From a virus, in IMG/VR virus record IMGVR_UViG_3300025314_000111, positions 1 through 21,991 of that record: a stretch of 21,991 bases of DNA; one strand, 5' to 3'. The notes under the pieces are model-generated. The model did no database searches, was not told where the DNA came from, and saw only the letters and a program-made list of their open reading frames with translations. The number at the start of each line of letters is the position of its first letter. Within the stretch, counting starts at the first letter, position 1. The position numbers were made by a program, and so were the translations under genes. This document shows positions 1,902 to 21,077 of this stretch, piece by piece.

Positions 1902-3824
1902 TTATTTGAATCTGCTGTATGAGAACTTCAGTCCGCTTGTTGTTCCAGCCTGTCTCAGCACAATCAAGCTGTCAGCTTTGGCATAATAGGACATTTGATC
2001 GTCCGCTACCGGCAATGTCTCGGTTCCGCTTGCGTTTCGGTGACTGACCGTGTACTTGTCTGTTGAGAGCGCGCCCGCGATATAGACTGCGGCTCGCGTT
2101 GCAGTCGTGGTGAAGGCCGAAGTGTCCGCTACGTCGCCATCAACATCAAGACTACCTGTCATCGTTACCGTAGTGCCGGAGAGTCCTGCGGCGACGGTAA
2201 GTGCGCCCGCCTTAGAGAGAGTGAAAATATCGGATGATTCAACACTGTCCGCACGAATTGAAAAGGTTCTATTTGATTCGTTGGCATCGTTATCAATCAC
2301 AAAGATATGGGATGCCCGCGAAGTGTAATTCAGGTTGGCGGTTTTTTCAAAGATGGCGTTTTCTGCGTTTGTCTCGGTAGCGTCTGCGCCATCAATTATA
2401 ATCTTTGCCATACCACCGGAAGCCACGACAATATCCCCCCCGCCGAAGATTCCATAAGAACTTGCCGTTACCGTAGTGCCGGAGATGGGACCTGCAAATG
2501 AACTTGTTCCCGTCCCATTCACTATCAATTCATCGCCAACAATCAGATCATTGTTGATTGTGGTCGTCCCCGTGAGTGCGCCCATGCTTATCGTAGTTGC
2601 AGCTCCGAAGGCATTTATCGTCGTAGGGGTTACGTTGAGCAATGCAAACGTAGTCTGCGTAGTTGTTAAGTCACCACCATTTACCGCCACATCACCTGCG
2701 ATGGTAGCAAGTCCCGTCACCGTCAGCGAATCATCCACCACCACTGACGTAAGCGAATTACGGATTGTGTCCAGCAAAGCAATGCCGCCTACTGTAACAT
2801 CGCCCACTGTAGCGACCGTCCCCGTGAATGAGGCCGCGCTTGATATGGTCTGGAGGTTGATGGTGCTATTGAACGTCTGCGCTTGCGTGAAAGTGTTGGT
2901 TTTGTCCTGATAGGCGATACGAGTCGAGTCAACGTAAGCAGCCGAGCCGAGTGAAGATATGCTGGCCTTGAGTGAATTCTGGTAGAGCGTCGTCAGTCCT
3001 GAAAGAGCTGTCGTTGTGTCAGCAGAGAGCGTCCACGTTCTGTCGGCTGACAAATCTTGAGCGCCTGCCGACGAAGCCAATGGAGCATTGGCCGCCACCG
3101 TCAACATGCGCGTCATGGGAGTCTTGCCGTCTAACTCCCACTGCATGGCAACGAGAGAGGTGGTATCGGAGTTAAGAAGAAACTTCGTCGTGTCGGACAA
3201 GGCTGAACCCATGCGGATCACGCGACCGTTCAGATACGTGGAAAGGAGTGAATCGTAGTGGCTTGCCCTCCATGGTAGCACTGCAGAACCAAGCGCATAC
3301 GTTGAGGCGGCTGAGGGGAGAACATTGCCCGTGAAATTTGTGCTCGCCGAATCAATGCTGACTTCTATTTCACCTCCACTTCCATCGGATTTTGCAAGAT
3401 AGAAGCTGATTGTCCCCGTTGTCGAGGCATCCTTGCCCCATGCACCGAGCACGGCATTGCCGGTCGAGGGTTGATAATAGAATTTTGCAGACGCTACACC
3501 GGCAAGAGACCCCTGCGCAGTCGATTGCAGATTGCCGGTCATGGTCCAATCGCCGACGAGCGTATCGCCCGTGACTGTGCCATCAACGGTGAGGTTCGAC
3601 GTCAATCGAAGAGCTGTAATGATCGAGTCGATGGATAACGTTCCGTCAATCGCCACATTGCCGCTAAACTTTCCGATGCGCACGAAAAGACTATCCCATC
3701 GTTTATCGAATCGTCCCAAATCAAATCCGTAATCAGTATTTGGAACAGGATTGGCGCGGAAGAGATAATCCTGGCTGAAAGCCAACATGGGGAACAACAG
3801 TAATATGTACAATGCGTGTCTCAT
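1902..3824 (-). CDS. Long tail fibre-like protein with Sec signal peptide
   Basis: A 640-residue protein rich in Thr, Ser, Gly, Ala and Asp. It has degenerate beta-repeats such as TGLATIAGDVAVNGGDL, SGTTVTASSYGIFGGGDIVV and SGTTVTMTGSLDVDGDV, the composition of elongated trimeric phage fibres. The N-terminus is a textbook signal peptide: R2, H3, a hydrophobic core, then LAFSQ at 15-19. This is odd for a virion protein assembled in the cytoplasm. The C-terminal ~60 residues (after RAAVYIAGALSTDKY) differ from the repeats and could be the receptor-binding tip. It begins by ATGA overlap with the second tail-tip paralog and precedes the lysis genes, the usual place for a fibre. The structural role is inferred from composition and position. 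Confidence 0.7.
   Translation of the reverse strand: MRHALYILLLFPMLAFSQDYLFRANPVPNTDYGFDLGRFDKRWDSLFVRIGKFSGNVAIDGTLSIDSIITALRLTSNLTVDGTVTGDTLVGDWTMTGNLQSTAQGSLAGVASAKFYYQPSTGNAVLGAWGKDASTTGTISFYLAKSDGSGGEIEVSIDSASTNFTGNVLPSAASTYALGSAVLPWRASHYDSLLSTYLNGRVIRMGSALSDTTKFLLNSDTTSLVAMQWELDGKTPMTRMLTVAANAPLASSAGAQDLSADRTWTLSADTTTALSGLTTLYQNSLKASISSLGSAAYVDSTRIAYQDKTNTFTQAQTFNSTINLQTISSAASFTGTVATVGDVTVGGIALLDTIRNSLTSVVVDDSLTVTGLATIAGDVAVNGGDLTTTQTTFALLNVTPTTINAFGAATTISMGALTGTTTINNDLIVGDELIVNGTGTSSFAGPISGTTVTASSYGIFGGGDIVVASGGMAKIIIDGADATETNAENAIFEKTANLNYTSRASHIFVIDNDANESNRTFSIRADSVESSDIFTLSKAGALTVAAGLSGTTVTMTGSLDVDGDVADTSAFTTTATRAAVYIAGALSTDKYTVSHRNASGTETLPVADDQMSYYAKADSLIVLRQAGTTSGLKFSYSRFK
2163..2485 (-). 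repeat. In-frame direct repeat inside the fibre gene
   Basis: The 20-base word CGTTACCGTAGTGCCGGAGA occurs exactly at 2163-2182 and again at 2466-2485. The offset is 303 bases, or 101 codons, so both copies encode the same SGTTVT stretch in the same frame. This supports growth of the fibre shaft by segmental duplication or recombination. Confidence 0.7.
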
Positions 3825-10969: not shown

Positions 10970-11505
10970 GCCACAATCCGTACGGAAAAATCCGATTTAT
11001 AGACGACGATCCCCGGAAGATTGACCACCAAAGATTCATCCTGTCCACCCGACTCATAAAATGGGCCGAGAGGATTGAATTCCGGTATCGTTATCGGTAT
11101 GCCACCGAGGGCCATATAGCCCGATAATTGTTGTGGAGTGCAAGCTGGGACCCTGCCATGAATGTCATCATAGAGCGCAGCCATCATATCATAATTGTTT
11201 CTGACGGCTTCTTGAGTTCTTCGTACGGATTGCGCTCCGGTAAAAAATCGGAACGTCAGGGTATGAGCGTATATTTTCCCGCTGGAATCCCTGTCGAATT
11301 TCTGTCCGGCTCTTCCCCGATAACTCACCAACACAAACGGCAAGAGCTTGATAAATCCCTGCATCATTTCCGGATTGAAAAGCAACATCTGGGGATTGAC
11401 TTCTCCGGCCAGCGTGTCGATCAAATTGATGCTGCCGAAATTCGTCGTATCCTCTCGGAGTGTGGCAATCAATTGATCCTCGATCTGCGCGACGGAATAC
11501 CGCAT
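10966..11505 (-). CDS. Mu gp37-like protein (DUF1834 type), tail terminator candidate
   Basis: A 179-residue protein that follows the gp36-type gene as in Mu-like genomes. Its pattern fits the gp37/DUF1834 group: N-terminal IEDQLIATLRED, a central LLPFVLVSYRGRAG, then YAHTLTFRFFTGAQSVRRTQEAVR, and a C-terminal VYKSDFSVRI. This group shares the fold of tail terminator proteins that close the tail tube at the head end. It begins in a TGATG overlap with the upstream gene and overlaps the next gene by ATGA, so the three connector genes are translationally coupled. The family call comes from pattern memory and gene order. Confidence 0.7.
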   Translation of the reverse strand: MRYSVAQIEDQLIATLREDTTNFGSINLIDTLAGEVNPQMLLFNPEMMQGFIKLLPFVLVSYRGRAGQKFDRDSSGKIYAHTLTFRFFTGAQSVRRTQEAVRNNYDMMAALYDDIHGRVPACTPQQLSGYMALGGIPITIPEFNPLGPFYESGGQDESLVVNLPGIVVYKSDFSVRIVA

Positions 11506-12005
11506 CAGAAATCACTCAAGAGACTATCGTCGTCATTAAAATCAACCTTACCCGCACGGTCGGTATTCATTTCCGAAACTGTACTGGCGACCGTGGCTGT
11601 CGAGGGAAGCTTCAGCATTCCGGAGCCAAGAGCATCCAAAGTTTCCATTGCATTGTCATAAATCGTTTGCCAGTCCTTCGGCATGGCGGTATTGAATGAC
11701 CGTCGTTGAATCGCGAGATAACAAGAAATCTCAACCGAGAGATTCTTGATAACTTCCGGGACTGTCGTAAATGGCACGGTATAATAGCTCCCAACTTTCG
11801 AGTCGATCAACGCATCAGCTTCAGCGATCAACGCCGCAACTATTGCTGGATTGACCGCGCCCGATGTCGTCGTATCCTGCGTCAGTTGGATCAATGTCGC
11901 TGCACCGATGCGATACTTCAAGTCCTGCGTTGTGCAATATCCCGTCTCCGAGGCTGTTGGAGCCTGTATGCCGGATGAACCGTACGCATTGCCGCCGACA
12001 CTCAT
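11505..12005 (-). CDS. Mu gp36-like head completion protein (DUF1320 type)
   Basis: A 166-residue protein with the gp36 (DUF1320) pattern after a 22-residue glycine/serine-rich leader. It has YCTTQDLKYRIGAATLIQLTQD, then AALIAEADALIDSKVGSYY, VPFTTVPEVIKNLSVEISCYL and an acidic Asp-rich C-terminus. In Mu-like phages it lies downstream of the capsid gene and is thought to act in head completion, like the lambdoid adaptor proteins on the portal. The start overlaps the upstream signal-peptide gene by ATGA. Unlike typical Mu-like order, six cargo genes separate it from the major capsid gene. Confidence 0.8.
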   Translation of the reverse strand: MSVGGNAYGSSGIQAPTASETGYCTTQDLKYRIGAATLIQLTQDTTTSGAVNPAIVAALIAEADALIDSKVGSYYTVPFTTVPEVIKNLSVEISCYLAIQRRSFNTAMPKDWQTIYDNAMETLDALGSGMLKLPSTATVASTVSEMNTDRAGKVDFNDDDSLLSDF

Positions 12006-12658
12006 GGTGTGCCTGTGCGTTTGATGACAAACAACGGTACTTTAGACGGCGACAGAGCGTTGCTACCCGCCAATGTTGCCGGAAAATCCGCGAACCATGC
12101 TGACGGGGAGAGGGTTCCGACAATACCGAGCCTTTTCACGTTTGCATACCACTGCGCATTGTTGACAATATCCATCGTCGGCAGGGTCGTATTCGTATTA
12201 TGTGAATACATCAAGGCATACGTCTTCCAGGGCTTCAGGAGTACTGTCGTCGTAAAGGCTTGCGACCAGAGATTCCCCGTTGACGTAATGTTAGGTGATC
12301 CCCACGCCGTGTAACAAATCAGCGTCGAATCCTCCATGTCGTAGATCGCCACACGGAAACTGTCCGTCGCTACGAGGGTGTTGATAAAATACCAACTTAC
12401 AGAATCGGGTGTGATGTATTCGTTGACTTGAAATCCAAACCAATTCTGATTATATGCCGCTCCCATCCAGGCCGAGCCTGTTGCCGTCTCGACAAAATAC
12501 GGGACATACTGATAGTATTGCTCATTCGGCGTATCTTGTTCGAGCGTATTGACCTTCACCGTGCGGGTCGTATCGCTTGGGACCAACTTCCCTCCTGAGA
12601 CTTTCCATTGGCCGAAGGCGAGAACTGGTATGATGAGAAGTATGAGAAGTGTTTTCAT
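12002..12658 (-). CDS. Secreted-type beta protein with Sec signal peptide, in structural operon
   Basis: The open frame begins further upstream, but ATG 12658 is preferred because it overlaps the previous stop as ATGA and yields a perfect signal peptide: K2, a hydrophobic core of Leu and Ile, then VLAFGQ at about residues 12-17. The mature part (about 200 residues) is rich in aromatic residues, Asn, Thr and Ser, has few charges, and looks all-beta, with WYFINTLVATDSFRVAIYDM and LLKPWKTYALMYSHNTNTTL, reminiscent of jelly-roll exoproteins. No family is recognised. It lies between a fibre-type gene and the gp36 gene. Either a virion fibre partner with an unexpected signal peptide or a protein sent to the host envelope during infection. 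Confidence 0.65.
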   Translation of the reverse strand: MKTLLILLIIPVLAFGQWKVSGGKLVPSDTTRTVKVNTLEQDTPNEQYYQYVPYFVETATGSAWMGAAYNQNWFGFQVNEYITPDSVSWYFINTLVATDSFRVAIYDMEDSTLICYTAWGSPNITSTGNLWSQAFTTTVLLKPWKTYALMYSHNTNTTLPTMDIVNNAQWYANVKRLGIVGTLSPSAWFADFPATLAGSNALSPSKVPLFVIKRTGTP

Positions 12659-13308
12659 GACGGATACACCCTTATCGTTACGGTTGCCGTCCAACCGTCC
12701 TGCTCAAATGTGATCAGTTGAACGGTCGCGGTCGAGACATAATACCCATCCATTGTCAGGGGAAGGCTTGTTGTCGTGTCTCTACCATGCGGATCGACGG
12801 TAGTTTTCCCCGCAACAAATGCACCCGTGAGCGTGCCGAGATAGACTCCCGATGATGTCCGCGTCCATACAATGACTGCCGACAGAGTACTTTTAATGAC
12901 TGTTGCTACGGGGTCATCCGTCCCGGCCTGTGTTATGCTCGCGACATAGATATCGTCCCCTGCCCTCGTTGTCAGATCATCAATGATTTTCGCCGTGAGA
13001 TTGAGTTCAAAATTATAGGTATGTCCGGAAGTGTTGAACGCCCGTGCTGTTGTTCCTTCCTGCGCCCGCGTGACCGTGAAGGTATCGCTGGATTTGGCTG
13101 TAACCCTGCCTACCTCCGCAGCACTGGCATGATACGCCTCAGCTGCGGAATTATAGAGCGTATCCCAGATGACGACGTTATACTCGCCCGACGCGGGATC
13201 GGGAAACCTCGCACCCTGGCCGGATTCGAGCACAACGGACGTCGCCGCCGCAGTAATGCCGGTTAAGAGTTGGCCAATGCCGAAATTCGCTACTTGATCC
13301 TGTGCCAT
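12655..13308 (-). CDS. Fibre-type structural protein with phage FTVTRAQEGTTA motif
   Basis: A 217-residue beta-rich protein. The first half carries a pattern common in phage fibre and virion-associated proteins: TSVVLESGQGARFPDPASGEY, then EVGRVTAKSSDTFTVTRAQE, GTTARAF, and a LTAKIIDDLTTR segment. The second half (~110-217) is a separate beta domain with GDDIYVASITQAGTDDPVAT and a C-terminal ATVTIRVYPS. I infer a small adhesin or fibre. It lies between the glycosyltransferase gene (3-base gap) and the signal-peptide protein (ATGA overlap), so these three genes look co-translated and possibly functionally linked. Confidence 0.6.
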   Translation of the reverse strand: MAQDQVANFGIGQLLTGITAAATSVVLESGQGARFPDPASGEYNVVIWDTLYNSAAEAYHASAAEVGRVTAKSSDTFTVTRAQEGTTARAFNTSGHTYNFELNLTAKIIDDLTTRAGDDIYVASITQAGTDDPVATVIKSTLSAVIVWTRTSSGVYLGTLTGAFVAGKTTVDPHGRDTTTSLPLTMDGYYVSTATVQLITFEQDGWTATVTIRVYPS

Positions 13309-13311
13309 TCA

Positions 13312-14043
13312 TTACCTCGTAAGCATATGTCCAACCTGCCACTCGGTGATGCGCTTCGTGATTGCTTCCACCTTTTCTTGGACCGTCACCGTGTAGGTGT
13401 GAAAAAGAAACTCTTTTGAAATTCCTTTCTGACCGTCAGGCGTGGTCCCCTCTATCGGAGTTTGAGGACAGAGTTTGTAAATGTCCTCGAACGACTTAAA
13501 GGCAAGTCCGAAGCGCGCAATGTTCCGCGAAAGCGCATAGTCATCAACCAAATGTTCTCTCGTAATTCCATGTTTGACTTCATTCGGAGTCGGGAAGATA
13601 TTTGCAATAACTTCCTCCGGACTCATATCCAACGGCCGCCAAAGATCAAGGCAAAGGTCTGAGGCGATCATGAACCAATTACCCGGAGCCAAGTATCTCC
13701 CGTCTCTCAGCGAGTAATTGTCATTCCTGAATCGGATATGACTTATGTCCGCCGTGTGAAAACTGACCGTCCCTTTCGGGAGGTAGATCGTAAAGTCCGG
13801 ACACTCAGGATGAATCAGCGCATCCAAGTCCACATAAATCTGCCAATCGCTCGGACTCTCTTTTGCTAAAGAATATATCTGAAGTTTCTCATACGTTACC
13901 GGCCAATCGGGAAACTTTCTCTCAGTGATCGTCCTGATATTCGCCCCAATTCTTTCTGCGTAATGTCTGATGAAGGGAAGCGTCAGAGCCTTTACCTCTG
14001 GGGCGAAGTTGTCAATATCCAAGAGATAGATCGTCTTTGTCAC
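13312..14043 (-). CDS. Glycosyltransferase, GT-A type with DxD motif
   Basis: A 243-residue soluble protein. It opens with a strand (TIYLLDIDNF), and has VTYEKLQIYSLAKESP followed by DWQIYVDLDALIHP, in which D72-x-D74 fits the metal/nucleotide-sugar-binding DxD of GT-A fold enzymes. APGNWFMIAS, LVDDYALSRNIARFGL and a C-terminal LFHTY also recall GT8/GT34-like families. It would move a sugar from a nucleotide donor to an acceptor that cannot be named from sequence. GTG start in TAGTG overlap with the upstream mini-gene. Its position among virion genes suggests modification of a capsid, beta-helix or fibre protein, or of a host surface glycan. Confidence 0.75.
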   Translation of the reverse strand: MTKTIYLLDIDNFAPEVKALTLPFIRHYAERIGANIRTITERKFPDWPVTYEKLQIYSLAKESPSDWQIYVDLDALIHPECPDFTIYLPKGTVSFHTADISHIRFRNDNYSLRDGRYLAPGNWFMIASDLCLDLWRPLDMSPEEVIANIFPTPNEVKHGITREHLVDDYALSRNIARFGLAFKSFEDIYKLCPQTPIEGTTPDGQKGISKEFLFHTYTVTVQEKVEAITKRITEWQVGHMLTR

Positions 14044-19772: not shown

Positions 19773-21077
19773 TCAGTAATTCTCGGTTATGCTCACAGCT
19801 TCCATCTCAGGGATTTCGATTGCGCGCAGGTCAGCTGATGTCAAAGGCGGTTCAGTCTCAATAAGTTTCGTATAGGCCCAGACAAGAGCATCCATTCTGT
19901 TCGGCGAAGCATCCCCAGGAGTCCAAAGGGCCATTTCATCTTCCAATAATCCGAACACTCCGATATGATGCGCTCTTGATTGTTCGTAGATCGCAGCCAC
20001 CGGCTCAGCTCTCGTTGCTTTCCCTCTTGAAGCGTGGACCAACTCAACGGGAACATCTTTATCGACTTCATGAATAACGGAAGCAACCATTTCACCGCCG
20101 TTATTCTGCTCGGCAACAATGAAGTTAGCCTTATGCACATGATAGGCTGTCACCGCCGCTTTGGCCCAATCATTCGGCGAACCTTGTATGCTGTTGTCTG
20201 CAAGCGTGAAGTATTCATTCTTCGCTCTTCCTGCTACGACAATACCGGCTTCGTCTCCAGTGGAAGTAGCTGAAGGATCGACTCCGACGATGACCAAATC
20301 CAAATCAGGGTATGAGGTTCTGCGATTGACTTCGATATTCTCACGTGTCCATAAAGCCCCTGGAGCTGCATCAATGTCTTCGGCCATAATTTCTTGCCGA
20401 AAAGCAAGGTCGGTCATGTCATGTGAGATGTCCGCCAGGGCTTTGCGTGACAACGATGGATTACTGTATGAGGTGAAGTGGAAGGCTTGCCACCGGCCGG
20501 TTGTATCTGCCGTGGCTTTCAAAAACATTTTCGCGCAATAACGAGGATCATTTGCCTTTGTGACGCTGCGGGAATGTAACGAGGGTGGCGTATAGATGAA
20601 CACTGCGTCTCCGTTATTGTCTAACAACATTGGCGCACCAACAATTTCCCATGCATCCTCGTTCATCAGCTGAAACTCATCCAAGATCAATAGATCAGCG
20701 TAATCACCTCGAAGCGTATCGGCGTTCCAGGCCGTCTTTGCTCTGATACGCTGCTCTTTGTGTACGACTTCAATAACATGTTCCGTCTCGTTCTTTTTCA
20801 ATACTCCACGTTTGACCGCATGTGCAAAAGCTCGCGTGATCTCTGTCCAAAATCGTTGTATCTGGTCTGAGGTTGGTGTGGCATAGAGAACTCGCTTGCC
20901 CACCAGAAAAGCCTCACATGCAAGTATCGCCGCTCCTACTGTTTTCCCGCCTCGACGCCCGCCGCGAATGATTTTCCGTTTTACCTTCGATCGCAGAAAC
21001 GGCAATTGATTTTCGTGCGGTCGCGGAATATCAACCCATTCCTCGTTAATCGGTTTCGTCTTGCTTTGGCGTATCAA
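19773..21077 (-). CDS. terL: Terminase large subunit (ATPase and nuclease)
   Basis: A 434-residue packaging motor protein. The ATPase domain has Walker A RGGRRGGKT at residues 38-46 and Walker B LLILDE at 129-134. A Q-motif-like ENQLPFL lies before Walker A, and the FIYTPPS stretch near 165 fits the coupling motif. The C-terminal RNase H-type nuclease shows VIVGVDPSAT (acidic D), FIVAEQNNGGEMV and the last acid in NRMDALVWAY. The only reasonable start is TTG 21077, since no ATG lies before Walker A; it overlaps the small gene by 32 bases. It docks on the portal encoded next, cuts concatemers and pumps DNA. Confidence 0.92.
   Translation of the reverse strand: MIRQSKTKPINEEWVDIPRPHENQLPFLRSKVKRKIIRGGRRGGKTVGAAILACEAFLVGKRVLYATPTSDQIQRFWTEITRAFAHAVKRGVLKKNETEHVIEVVHKEQRIRAKTAWNADTLRGDYADLLILDEFQLMNEDAWEIVGAPMLLDNNGDAVFIYTPPSLHSRSVTKANDPRYCAKMFLKATADTTGRWQAFHFTSYSNPSLSRKALADISHDMTDLAFRQEIMAEDIDAAPGALWTRENIEVNRRTSYPDLDLVIVGVDPSATSTGDEAGIVVAGRAKNEYFTLADNSIQGSPNDWAKAAVTAYHVHKANFIVAEQNNGGEMVASVIHEVDKDVPVELVHASRGKATRAEPVAAIYEQSRAHHIGVFGLLEDEMALWTPGDASPNRMDALVWAYTKLIETEPPLTSADLRAIEIPEMEAVSITENY

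What the first reader, a model, noticed from the sequence alone, without database searches (positions are those of the whole stretch)
12002..12658. Second signal-peptide protein embedded among head and connector genes
ATG 12658 in ATGA overlap gives K2, a Leu/Ile core and VLAFGQ, very like the fibre's LAFSQ. Two independent proteins of the structural operon with the same export signature is unusual and suggests a deliberate export step in this phage's life cycle, or two acquisitions from the same host lineage. The mature domain is an unrecognised all-beta protein.
Basis: partly seen in the sequence, partly recalled or inferred. Interest (0 to 1): 0.6.

Follow-up and report, generated by a model that had tools for sequence, protein, structure and literature searches.

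The report
Exported fibre-like phage appendage protein
This phage, and its relatives, make fibre-like proteins with a cleavable export signal typical of Bacteroidota hosts; in well-studied marine phages proteins built the same way are found in the finished virus particle, so some tailed phages may add parts that were made outside the cell interior.

Summary
ORF 12658-12002(-) encodes 218 aa and starts in an ATGA overlap with a textbook Sec/SPase I signal peptide (MKTLLILLIIPVLAFG|QWK). It lies between a tail-fibre-like gene and the gp36 head-tail adaptor. The resemblance to the fibre's LAFS|Q follows from the Bacteroidetes 'Q-rule' (Gln at +1) and needs no shared acquisition. The mature protein matches no database family, but I found a syntenic phage orthologue (L154): 63% identity over residues 1-43 including the signal peptide, with a strongly diverged C-terminus. 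Related structural cassettes carry 14 signal-peptide proteins in 173 genes, 11 with [AGST]Q; more distant Mu-type cassettes carry 3 in 424, none with Q (p about 1e-6). In Cellulophaga phages phi18:3, phi10:1 and phi19:1, eleven proteins annotated as virion structural by MS/MS carry such signal peptides. One of their beta-helix domains occurs in other MS/MS-verified virion proteins (phi4:1, phi14:2) on an N-terminus without a signal peptide. Best reading: an exported, SPase I-processed virion appendage whose conserved N-terminus docks to the particle, most likely at lysis, and whose variable beta domain binds a surface ligand. Export is strongly supported; virion location and docking are inferred.

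The parts
12002..12658 (-). The exported protein P0001 (218 aa)
   Evidence: ORF; syntenic orthologue L154:13930-14640; codon-position pattern of differences
12611..12658 (-). Signal peptide, residues 1-16 (MKTLLILLIIPVLAFG), predicted SPase I cut before Gln17
   Evidence: sequence; scoring and shuffle control; conserved in L154
12530..12610 (-). Conserved mature N-terminal segment, residues 17-43 (QWKVSGGKLVPSDTTRTVKVNTLEQDT), proposed docking segment
   Evidence: conserved with L154 while the remainder diverges; docking role inferred
12005..12529 (-). Variable beta-rich C-terminal part, residues 44-218, proposed ligand-binding domain
   Evidence: strands in low-confidence models; no family match
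12655..13308 (-). Upstream tail-fibre-like protein P0003, translationally coupled (ATGA), likely structural partner
   Evidence: phrog_8469 E 2e-15; 53.5% identical in L154, more than the major head protein (31%)
11505..12005 (-). gp36-type head-tail adaptor, next gene downstream
   Evidence: PF07030 E 2e-25, phrog_195
1902..3824 (-). The second signal-peptide protein of the window, fibre P0002 (640 aa)
   Evidence: same slot as L099:16272 signal-peptide protein, 3' of g3821
3774..3824 (-). Signal peptide of the fibre, residues 1-17, cut before Gln18
1905..2114 (-). C-terminal domain of the fibre, shared with L097 signal-peptide protein 11826-12218
   Evidence: phmmer E 1e-20

Best explanation
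P0001 is a late phage structural-operon protein made with a cleavable Sec signal peptide. Step 1 (well supported, not shown by experiment): it is exported through Sec and cut by host signal peptidase I before Gln17. Step 2 (inferred from the host rule): the new N-terminal Gln is cyclised to pyroglutamate by the host's glutaminyl cyclase, as for Bacteroidetes SPase I substrates. Step 3 (inferred): the protein folds in the periplasm, without a T9SS sorting domain, and is released at lysis. Step 4 (inferred, by analogy with MS/MS-annotated signal-peptide virion proteins of Cellulophaga phages): the conserved segment after the cut (QWKVSGGKLVPSDTTRTVKV) docks to the particle, plausibly through the translationally coupled neighbour P0003 near the gp36 neck. 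Step 5 (inferred): the fast-diverging beta domain binds a host-surface or environmental ligand. The second signal-peptide protein, the fibre at 1902-3824, would use the same route.
For: Signal peptide beyond chance and conserved in an orthologue with conserved start, overlap and gene order. N-terminus conserved and C-terminus diverged, the usual architecture of phage fibres. 14 signal-peptide proteins in 173 genes of related cassettes, 11 with [AGST]Q, against 3 in 424 with no Q in more distant Mu-type cassettes (Fisher p 6e-6 and 1e-6). They occupy variable slots: L085 9821, L086 8269, L096 6832/7229, L097 8430-11826, L098 11127/14138, L099 16272. Cellulophaga phages: phi18:3 gp085-087, phi10:1 gp091-094, phi19:1 gp101-104 are annotated virion proteins by MS/MS and begin with signal peptides, 10 of 11 with Q at +1. 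Their signal peptide plus N-terminal region is swapped as a module between phage families (118 aa at 82-83%). The same beta-helix domain in phi4:1 gp050 and phi14:2 gp096 (MS/MS) carries an N-terminus without a signal peptide. No T9SS domain.
Against: No proteomics exists for this uncultured phage. P0001 has no detectable sequence similarity to the Cellulophaga proteins. Only one orthologue is known (two contigs with identical copies). MS/MS-detected signal-peptide proteins could in principle be secreted proteins that co-purify with particles. Many Bacteroidota phages (phi38:1, phi46:1, phi17:2) have no signal-peptide structural proteins. The host is inferred from the Q-rule only. The structure models are poor.
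Confidence: 0.62

Rival explanations
1. Exported, but not a virion part: P0001 acts at the envelope of the infected cell (surface remodelling, superinfection exclusion, or release of bound progeny), as proposed for Q-rule genes of Porphyromonas gingivalis phages.
For: PMC10367356 reports five unknown Nixviridae genes obeying the Q-rule and suggests effects on the host outer membrane; signal peptide and Gln conserved here.
Against: Placed among head and neck genes in both phages with tight overlaps; N-conserved/C-variable architecture; MS/MS-annotated virion proteins with the same signal type in other phages.
Confidence: 0.22
2. The N-terminus is not cut: the hydrophobic helix stays on and serves as a virion-docking or membrane-inserting peptide, with assembly entirely in the cytoplasm.
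For: Cytoplasmic assembly is the rule for tailed phages (general knowledge); cleavage has not been measured.
Against: A Gln after a small residue is maintained right at the cleavage position in 13 of 16 proteins (chance about 2e-10 with a 10-residue zone, treating the proteins as independent), which a docking helix would not need.
Confidence: 0.09
3. Recent cargo gene (moron) taken from a host secreted protein, unrelated to phage assembly.
For: Orphan mature domain; Bacteroidota-style signal peptide.
Against: A syntenic, diverged phage orthologue exists; codon preference and GC3 fit the rest of the window.
Confidence: 0.05

Closest known systems
Virion structural proteins of Cellulophaga phages phi18:3 (gp085-087), phi10:1 (gp091-094), phi19:1 (gp101-104), annotated from MS/MS
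   Same: Late tail/fibre arrays; Sec signal peptide, mostly Q at +1; N-terminal module conserved, C-terminal domain variable
   Different: No sequence similarity to P0001; lie in tail-fibre arrays, not between head and neck genes; P0001's presence in virions is untested
Q-rule signal-peptide genes of Porphyromonas gingivalis phages, Nixviridae (PMC10367356)
   Same: Phage genes adapted to the Bacteroidetes Sec/SPase I/Q-rule pathway
   Different: Described as genes of unknown function thought to modify the host envelope, not as virion fibres
Bacteroidetes Q-rule SPase I substrates (PMC5837995, PMC10653852)
   Same: Signal peptide followed directly by Gln
   Different: Host proteins; cleavage and cyclisation of the phage proteins not measured
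Ordinary tail fibres/tailspikes without signal peptide (phi4:1 gp050, phi14:2 gp096)
   Same: Same beta-helix domain as the signal-peptide protein phi18:3 gp087
   Different: N-terminus MAEPIIKNKNIQDIPIT..., no signal peptide, presumably assembled in the cytoplasm

Membership tests
Sec/SPase I substrate following the Bacteroidetes Q-rule | Positive n-region, uncharged h-core of 8 or more, small residues at -3/-1 | tested here: met
   K2; TLLILLIIPVLAFG; A14 at -3, G16 at -1
Sec/SPase I substrate following the Bacteroidetes Q-rule | Gln at +1, conserved | tested here: met
   Q17 in P0001, QW also in L154; 11 of 14 in related cassettes
Sec/SPase I substrate following the Bacteroidetes Q-rule | Not a lipoprotein (no Cys at +1) | tested here: met
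   sequence
Sec/SPase I substrate following the Bacteroidetes Q-rule | Cleavage and pyroglutamate observed | not testable with these tools
   needs N-terminal proteomics
Sec/SPase I substrate following the Bacteroidetes Q-rule | Host is a high-Q Bacteroidota (or Ignavibacteria) | tested here: inconclusive
   genome scans found no prophage of this clade in Bacteroidota; only proteobacterial and other distant relatives
Signal-peptide virion fibres of Bacteroidota phages | Encoded in the late structural operon | tested here: met
   between fibre-like gene and gp36; same in L154
Signal-peptide virion fibres of Bacteroidota phages | Conserved N-terminal module, variable C-terminus | tested here: met
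   63% over residues 1-43, poor afterwards; one orthologue only
Signal-peptide virion fibres of Bacteroidota phages | Sequence homology to the MS/MS-annotated members | tested here: not met
   no tblastn match of P0001 in the phages collection at E 1; so it works like, but is not shown to be homologous to, them
Signal-peptide virion fibres of Bacteroidota phages | Present in virions | not testable with these tools
   uncultured virus
Type IX secretion cargo | C-terminal T9SS sorting domain | tested here: not met
   no NCBIfam T9SS sorting-domain hit at E 1

The most novel reading that the evidence does not exclude
Tailed phages of Bacteroidota build part of their virion outside the cytoplasm: fibres and depolymerases are exported by Sec, matured by SPase I and glutaminyl cyclase, and attach to particles at or after lysis. 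The same fibre domain can be swapped between a cytoplasmic and an exported N-terminal module.
Probability: 0.45. Interest if true: 0.85.

Novelty: new variant of a known kind. Interest (0 to 1): 0.62.

Why it matters
Textbook tailed-phage assembly is wholly cytoplasmic. Virion proteins with cleavable, host-rule-conforming Sec signals imply a two-compartment assembly route, would explain how large glycan-degrading fibres could work on the host surface before lysis and on the particle afterwards, and give a sequence marker (signal peptide plus Gln) for receptor-binding proteins and for the host phylum of uncultured phages. It is directly testable in cultured Cellulophaga phages, whose virion proteomics was already done; neither the flavobacterial-phage paper read here (PMC8776804) nor the literature searches made here mention the signals on virion proteins.

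Tried and rejected
Family searches of P0001: Pfam, PHROGs, NCBIfam, PDB sequences, phage records by protein and by DNA: nothing. AlphaFold2 alone and with the orthologue: pLDDT 40, pTM 0.47/0.40; Foldseek against viral structures best E 0.12, not used. Scan with P0001 itself found nothing; the orthologue came only through the protease scan, and scans with its N-terminus or full length added no third member. Host by prophage relatives: head-protein and protease scans of genomes gave none in Bacteroidota. Common ancestry of the two window signal peptides: rejected as unnecessary, since the Q-rule explains the likeness. T9SS export: rejected. Possible shared motif G[KS]L[VIT]P just after the cut (P0001, L154, phi46:3 gp081, phi18:3 gp087): a lead only, not tested statistically.

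Full report
What is there. The window is a 21,991-base fragment of an uncultured siphovirus-like phage with Mu-type portal, protease and gp36 genes, all on the minus strand. ORF 12658-12002 encodes 218 aa, begins in an ATGA overlap with the preceding ORF 12655-13308 (PHROG tail-fibre-like, E 2e-15) and overlaps the next gene, the gp36 head-tail adaptor. Its N-terminus MKTLLILLIIPVLAFG|QWK is a standard Sec/signal peptidase I signal. With a simple predictor only this gene and the fibre at 1902-3824 (MRHALYILLLFPMLAFS|QDY) score among 26 window genes; shuffled proteins score at 0.36% per gene. No Cys follows the cut, so it is not a lipoprotein.

Is the start real. The mature protein matches no database family. 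A scan with the phage's head protease brought in L154, a contig whose major head protein is only 31% identical to the window's. It carries the same run: fibre-like gene (53.5% identical), ATGA overlap, a 236-aa protein, gp36 (38%). This 236-aa protein is 63% identical to P0001 over residues 1-43, including the signal peptide (MKRLLILLLLPMLASA|QWRLRDGKLTPTDPTRTVDVQTLEGDT), and much less alike afterwards. Nucleotide differences in this stretch concentrate at third codon positions, also within the signal peptide.

Why LAFGQ and LAFSQ look alike. In Bacteroidetes, SPase I substrates mostly expose Gln at +1, which is cyclised to pyroglutamate (PMC5837995, read; mean 71% of substrates across species; Ignavibacterium album 77%). 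Phage genes obeying the rule have been reported in Porphyromonas gingivalis phages as genes of unknown function (PMC10367356).

How common it is. In structural cassettes of related phages (15 loci, 173 called genes; one of the loci, L150, is a partial copy of the window's own phage and adds no signal-peptide gene) 14 genes have a signal peptide without further membrane segments, and 11 have [AGST]Q at its end. In 64 more distant Mu-type cassettes (424 genes; where titled, mostly proteobacterial) 3 do and none has the Gln (Fisher p 6e-6 and 1e-6; genes of related phages are not fully independent). The carriers sit in variable slots: head protein to neck (L085, L086, L097), portal to protease (L096, L154 8817), before the tape measure (L098), and behind g3821 exactly where the window's fibre sits (L099). 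Their mature parts look like fibre or spike domains: YadA-head repeats, a right-handed beta helix, a LamG-like domain. The C-terminal domain of the window's fibre recurs in the small signal-peptide protein L097 11826-12218 (E 1e-20).

Do such proteins end up in virions. Records of Cellulophaga phages state which proteins were found by MS/MS of virions. In phi10:1 the same holds for gp091-094, and in phi19:1 for gp101-103 plus gp104 with Lys at +1. The arrays recur in phi46:3, phi19:3, Nekkels and Ingeline. The first 118 aa of gp086, signal peptide included, are 82-83% identical in phages of another family, while the rest differs; the first 56-63 aa of gp087 behave alike. The beta-helix domain of gp087 also occurs in phi4:1 gp050 and phi14:2 gp096, MS/MS-annotated virion proteins that start with MAEPIIKNKNIQDIPIT and have no signal peptide. 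So the signal belongs to an N-terminal module, and the same fibre domain can be mounted on either kind of N-terminus. Not all Bacteroidota phages do this: phi38:1, phi46:1 and phi17:2 structural proteins examined have none.

Mechanism. Shown or close to shown: a conserved export signal of the host type; an N-conserved, C-variable architecture; proteins with the same signal type among MS/MS-annotated virion proteins of other phages. Inferred: cleavage before Gln17 and cyclisation; folding in the periplasm (no T9SS domain); docking of residues 17-43 to the particle at or after lysis, probably near P0003 and gp36, because the P0003 gene is coupled to P0001 and the pair is better conserved than the head protein; ligand binding by the beta domain. 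The main rival is an exported, non-virion role at the cell envelope. An uncut docking helix is unlikely because the Gln at the cut site is maintained.

Limits. One orthologue, poor structure models, a home-made signal-peptide predictor and greedy ORF calling, no host assignment, no proteomics for this clade, and possible co-purification of secreted proteins in the Cellulophaga data.

Noticed in passing
window 13312-14043 (-): A conserved protein with a glycosyltransferase-like YVDLDALIHPECPD stretch sits in the head operon; relatives in 37 viral contigs, often beside structural genes. No Pfam match.
   Followed up: partly
window 19773-21077 (-): The large terminase is 62% identical over 83% of its length to that of Methanosarcina virus MetMV (MK170447), far closer than to any other phage record.
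   Followed up: no
L122, L124, L126 (e.g. L122:3837, L122:6137): Tandem large genes with signal peptides all followed by QFTTVTATV, in phage contigs of unknown, possibly other hosts: perhaps the same export trick elsewhere.
   Followed up: no
L082 4049-4672 (-): Just upstream of the small terminase in a near-identical contig lies a repetitive ORF (ENAHAELRGNAHAELWENAH...).
   Followed up: no
L088 5795-8057: Four extra non-secretory ORFs inserted between portal and protease, a slot that holds signal-peptide proteins in L096 and L154.
   Followed up: no
window about 2510-2730 (fibre residues 366-437): Fibre repeat DVAVNGGDLTTTQTTFALLN... is shared with tens of unrelated viral contigs, some above 100 kb.
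   Followed up: no
L136 45363-45806 (Flavobacterium phage FCL-2): FCL-2 also encodes a fibre-like protein with signal peptide plus Gln (MKTIVITLLLSISTYS|QVGIATTTPTETLDVNG), annotated hypothetical.
   Followed up: no
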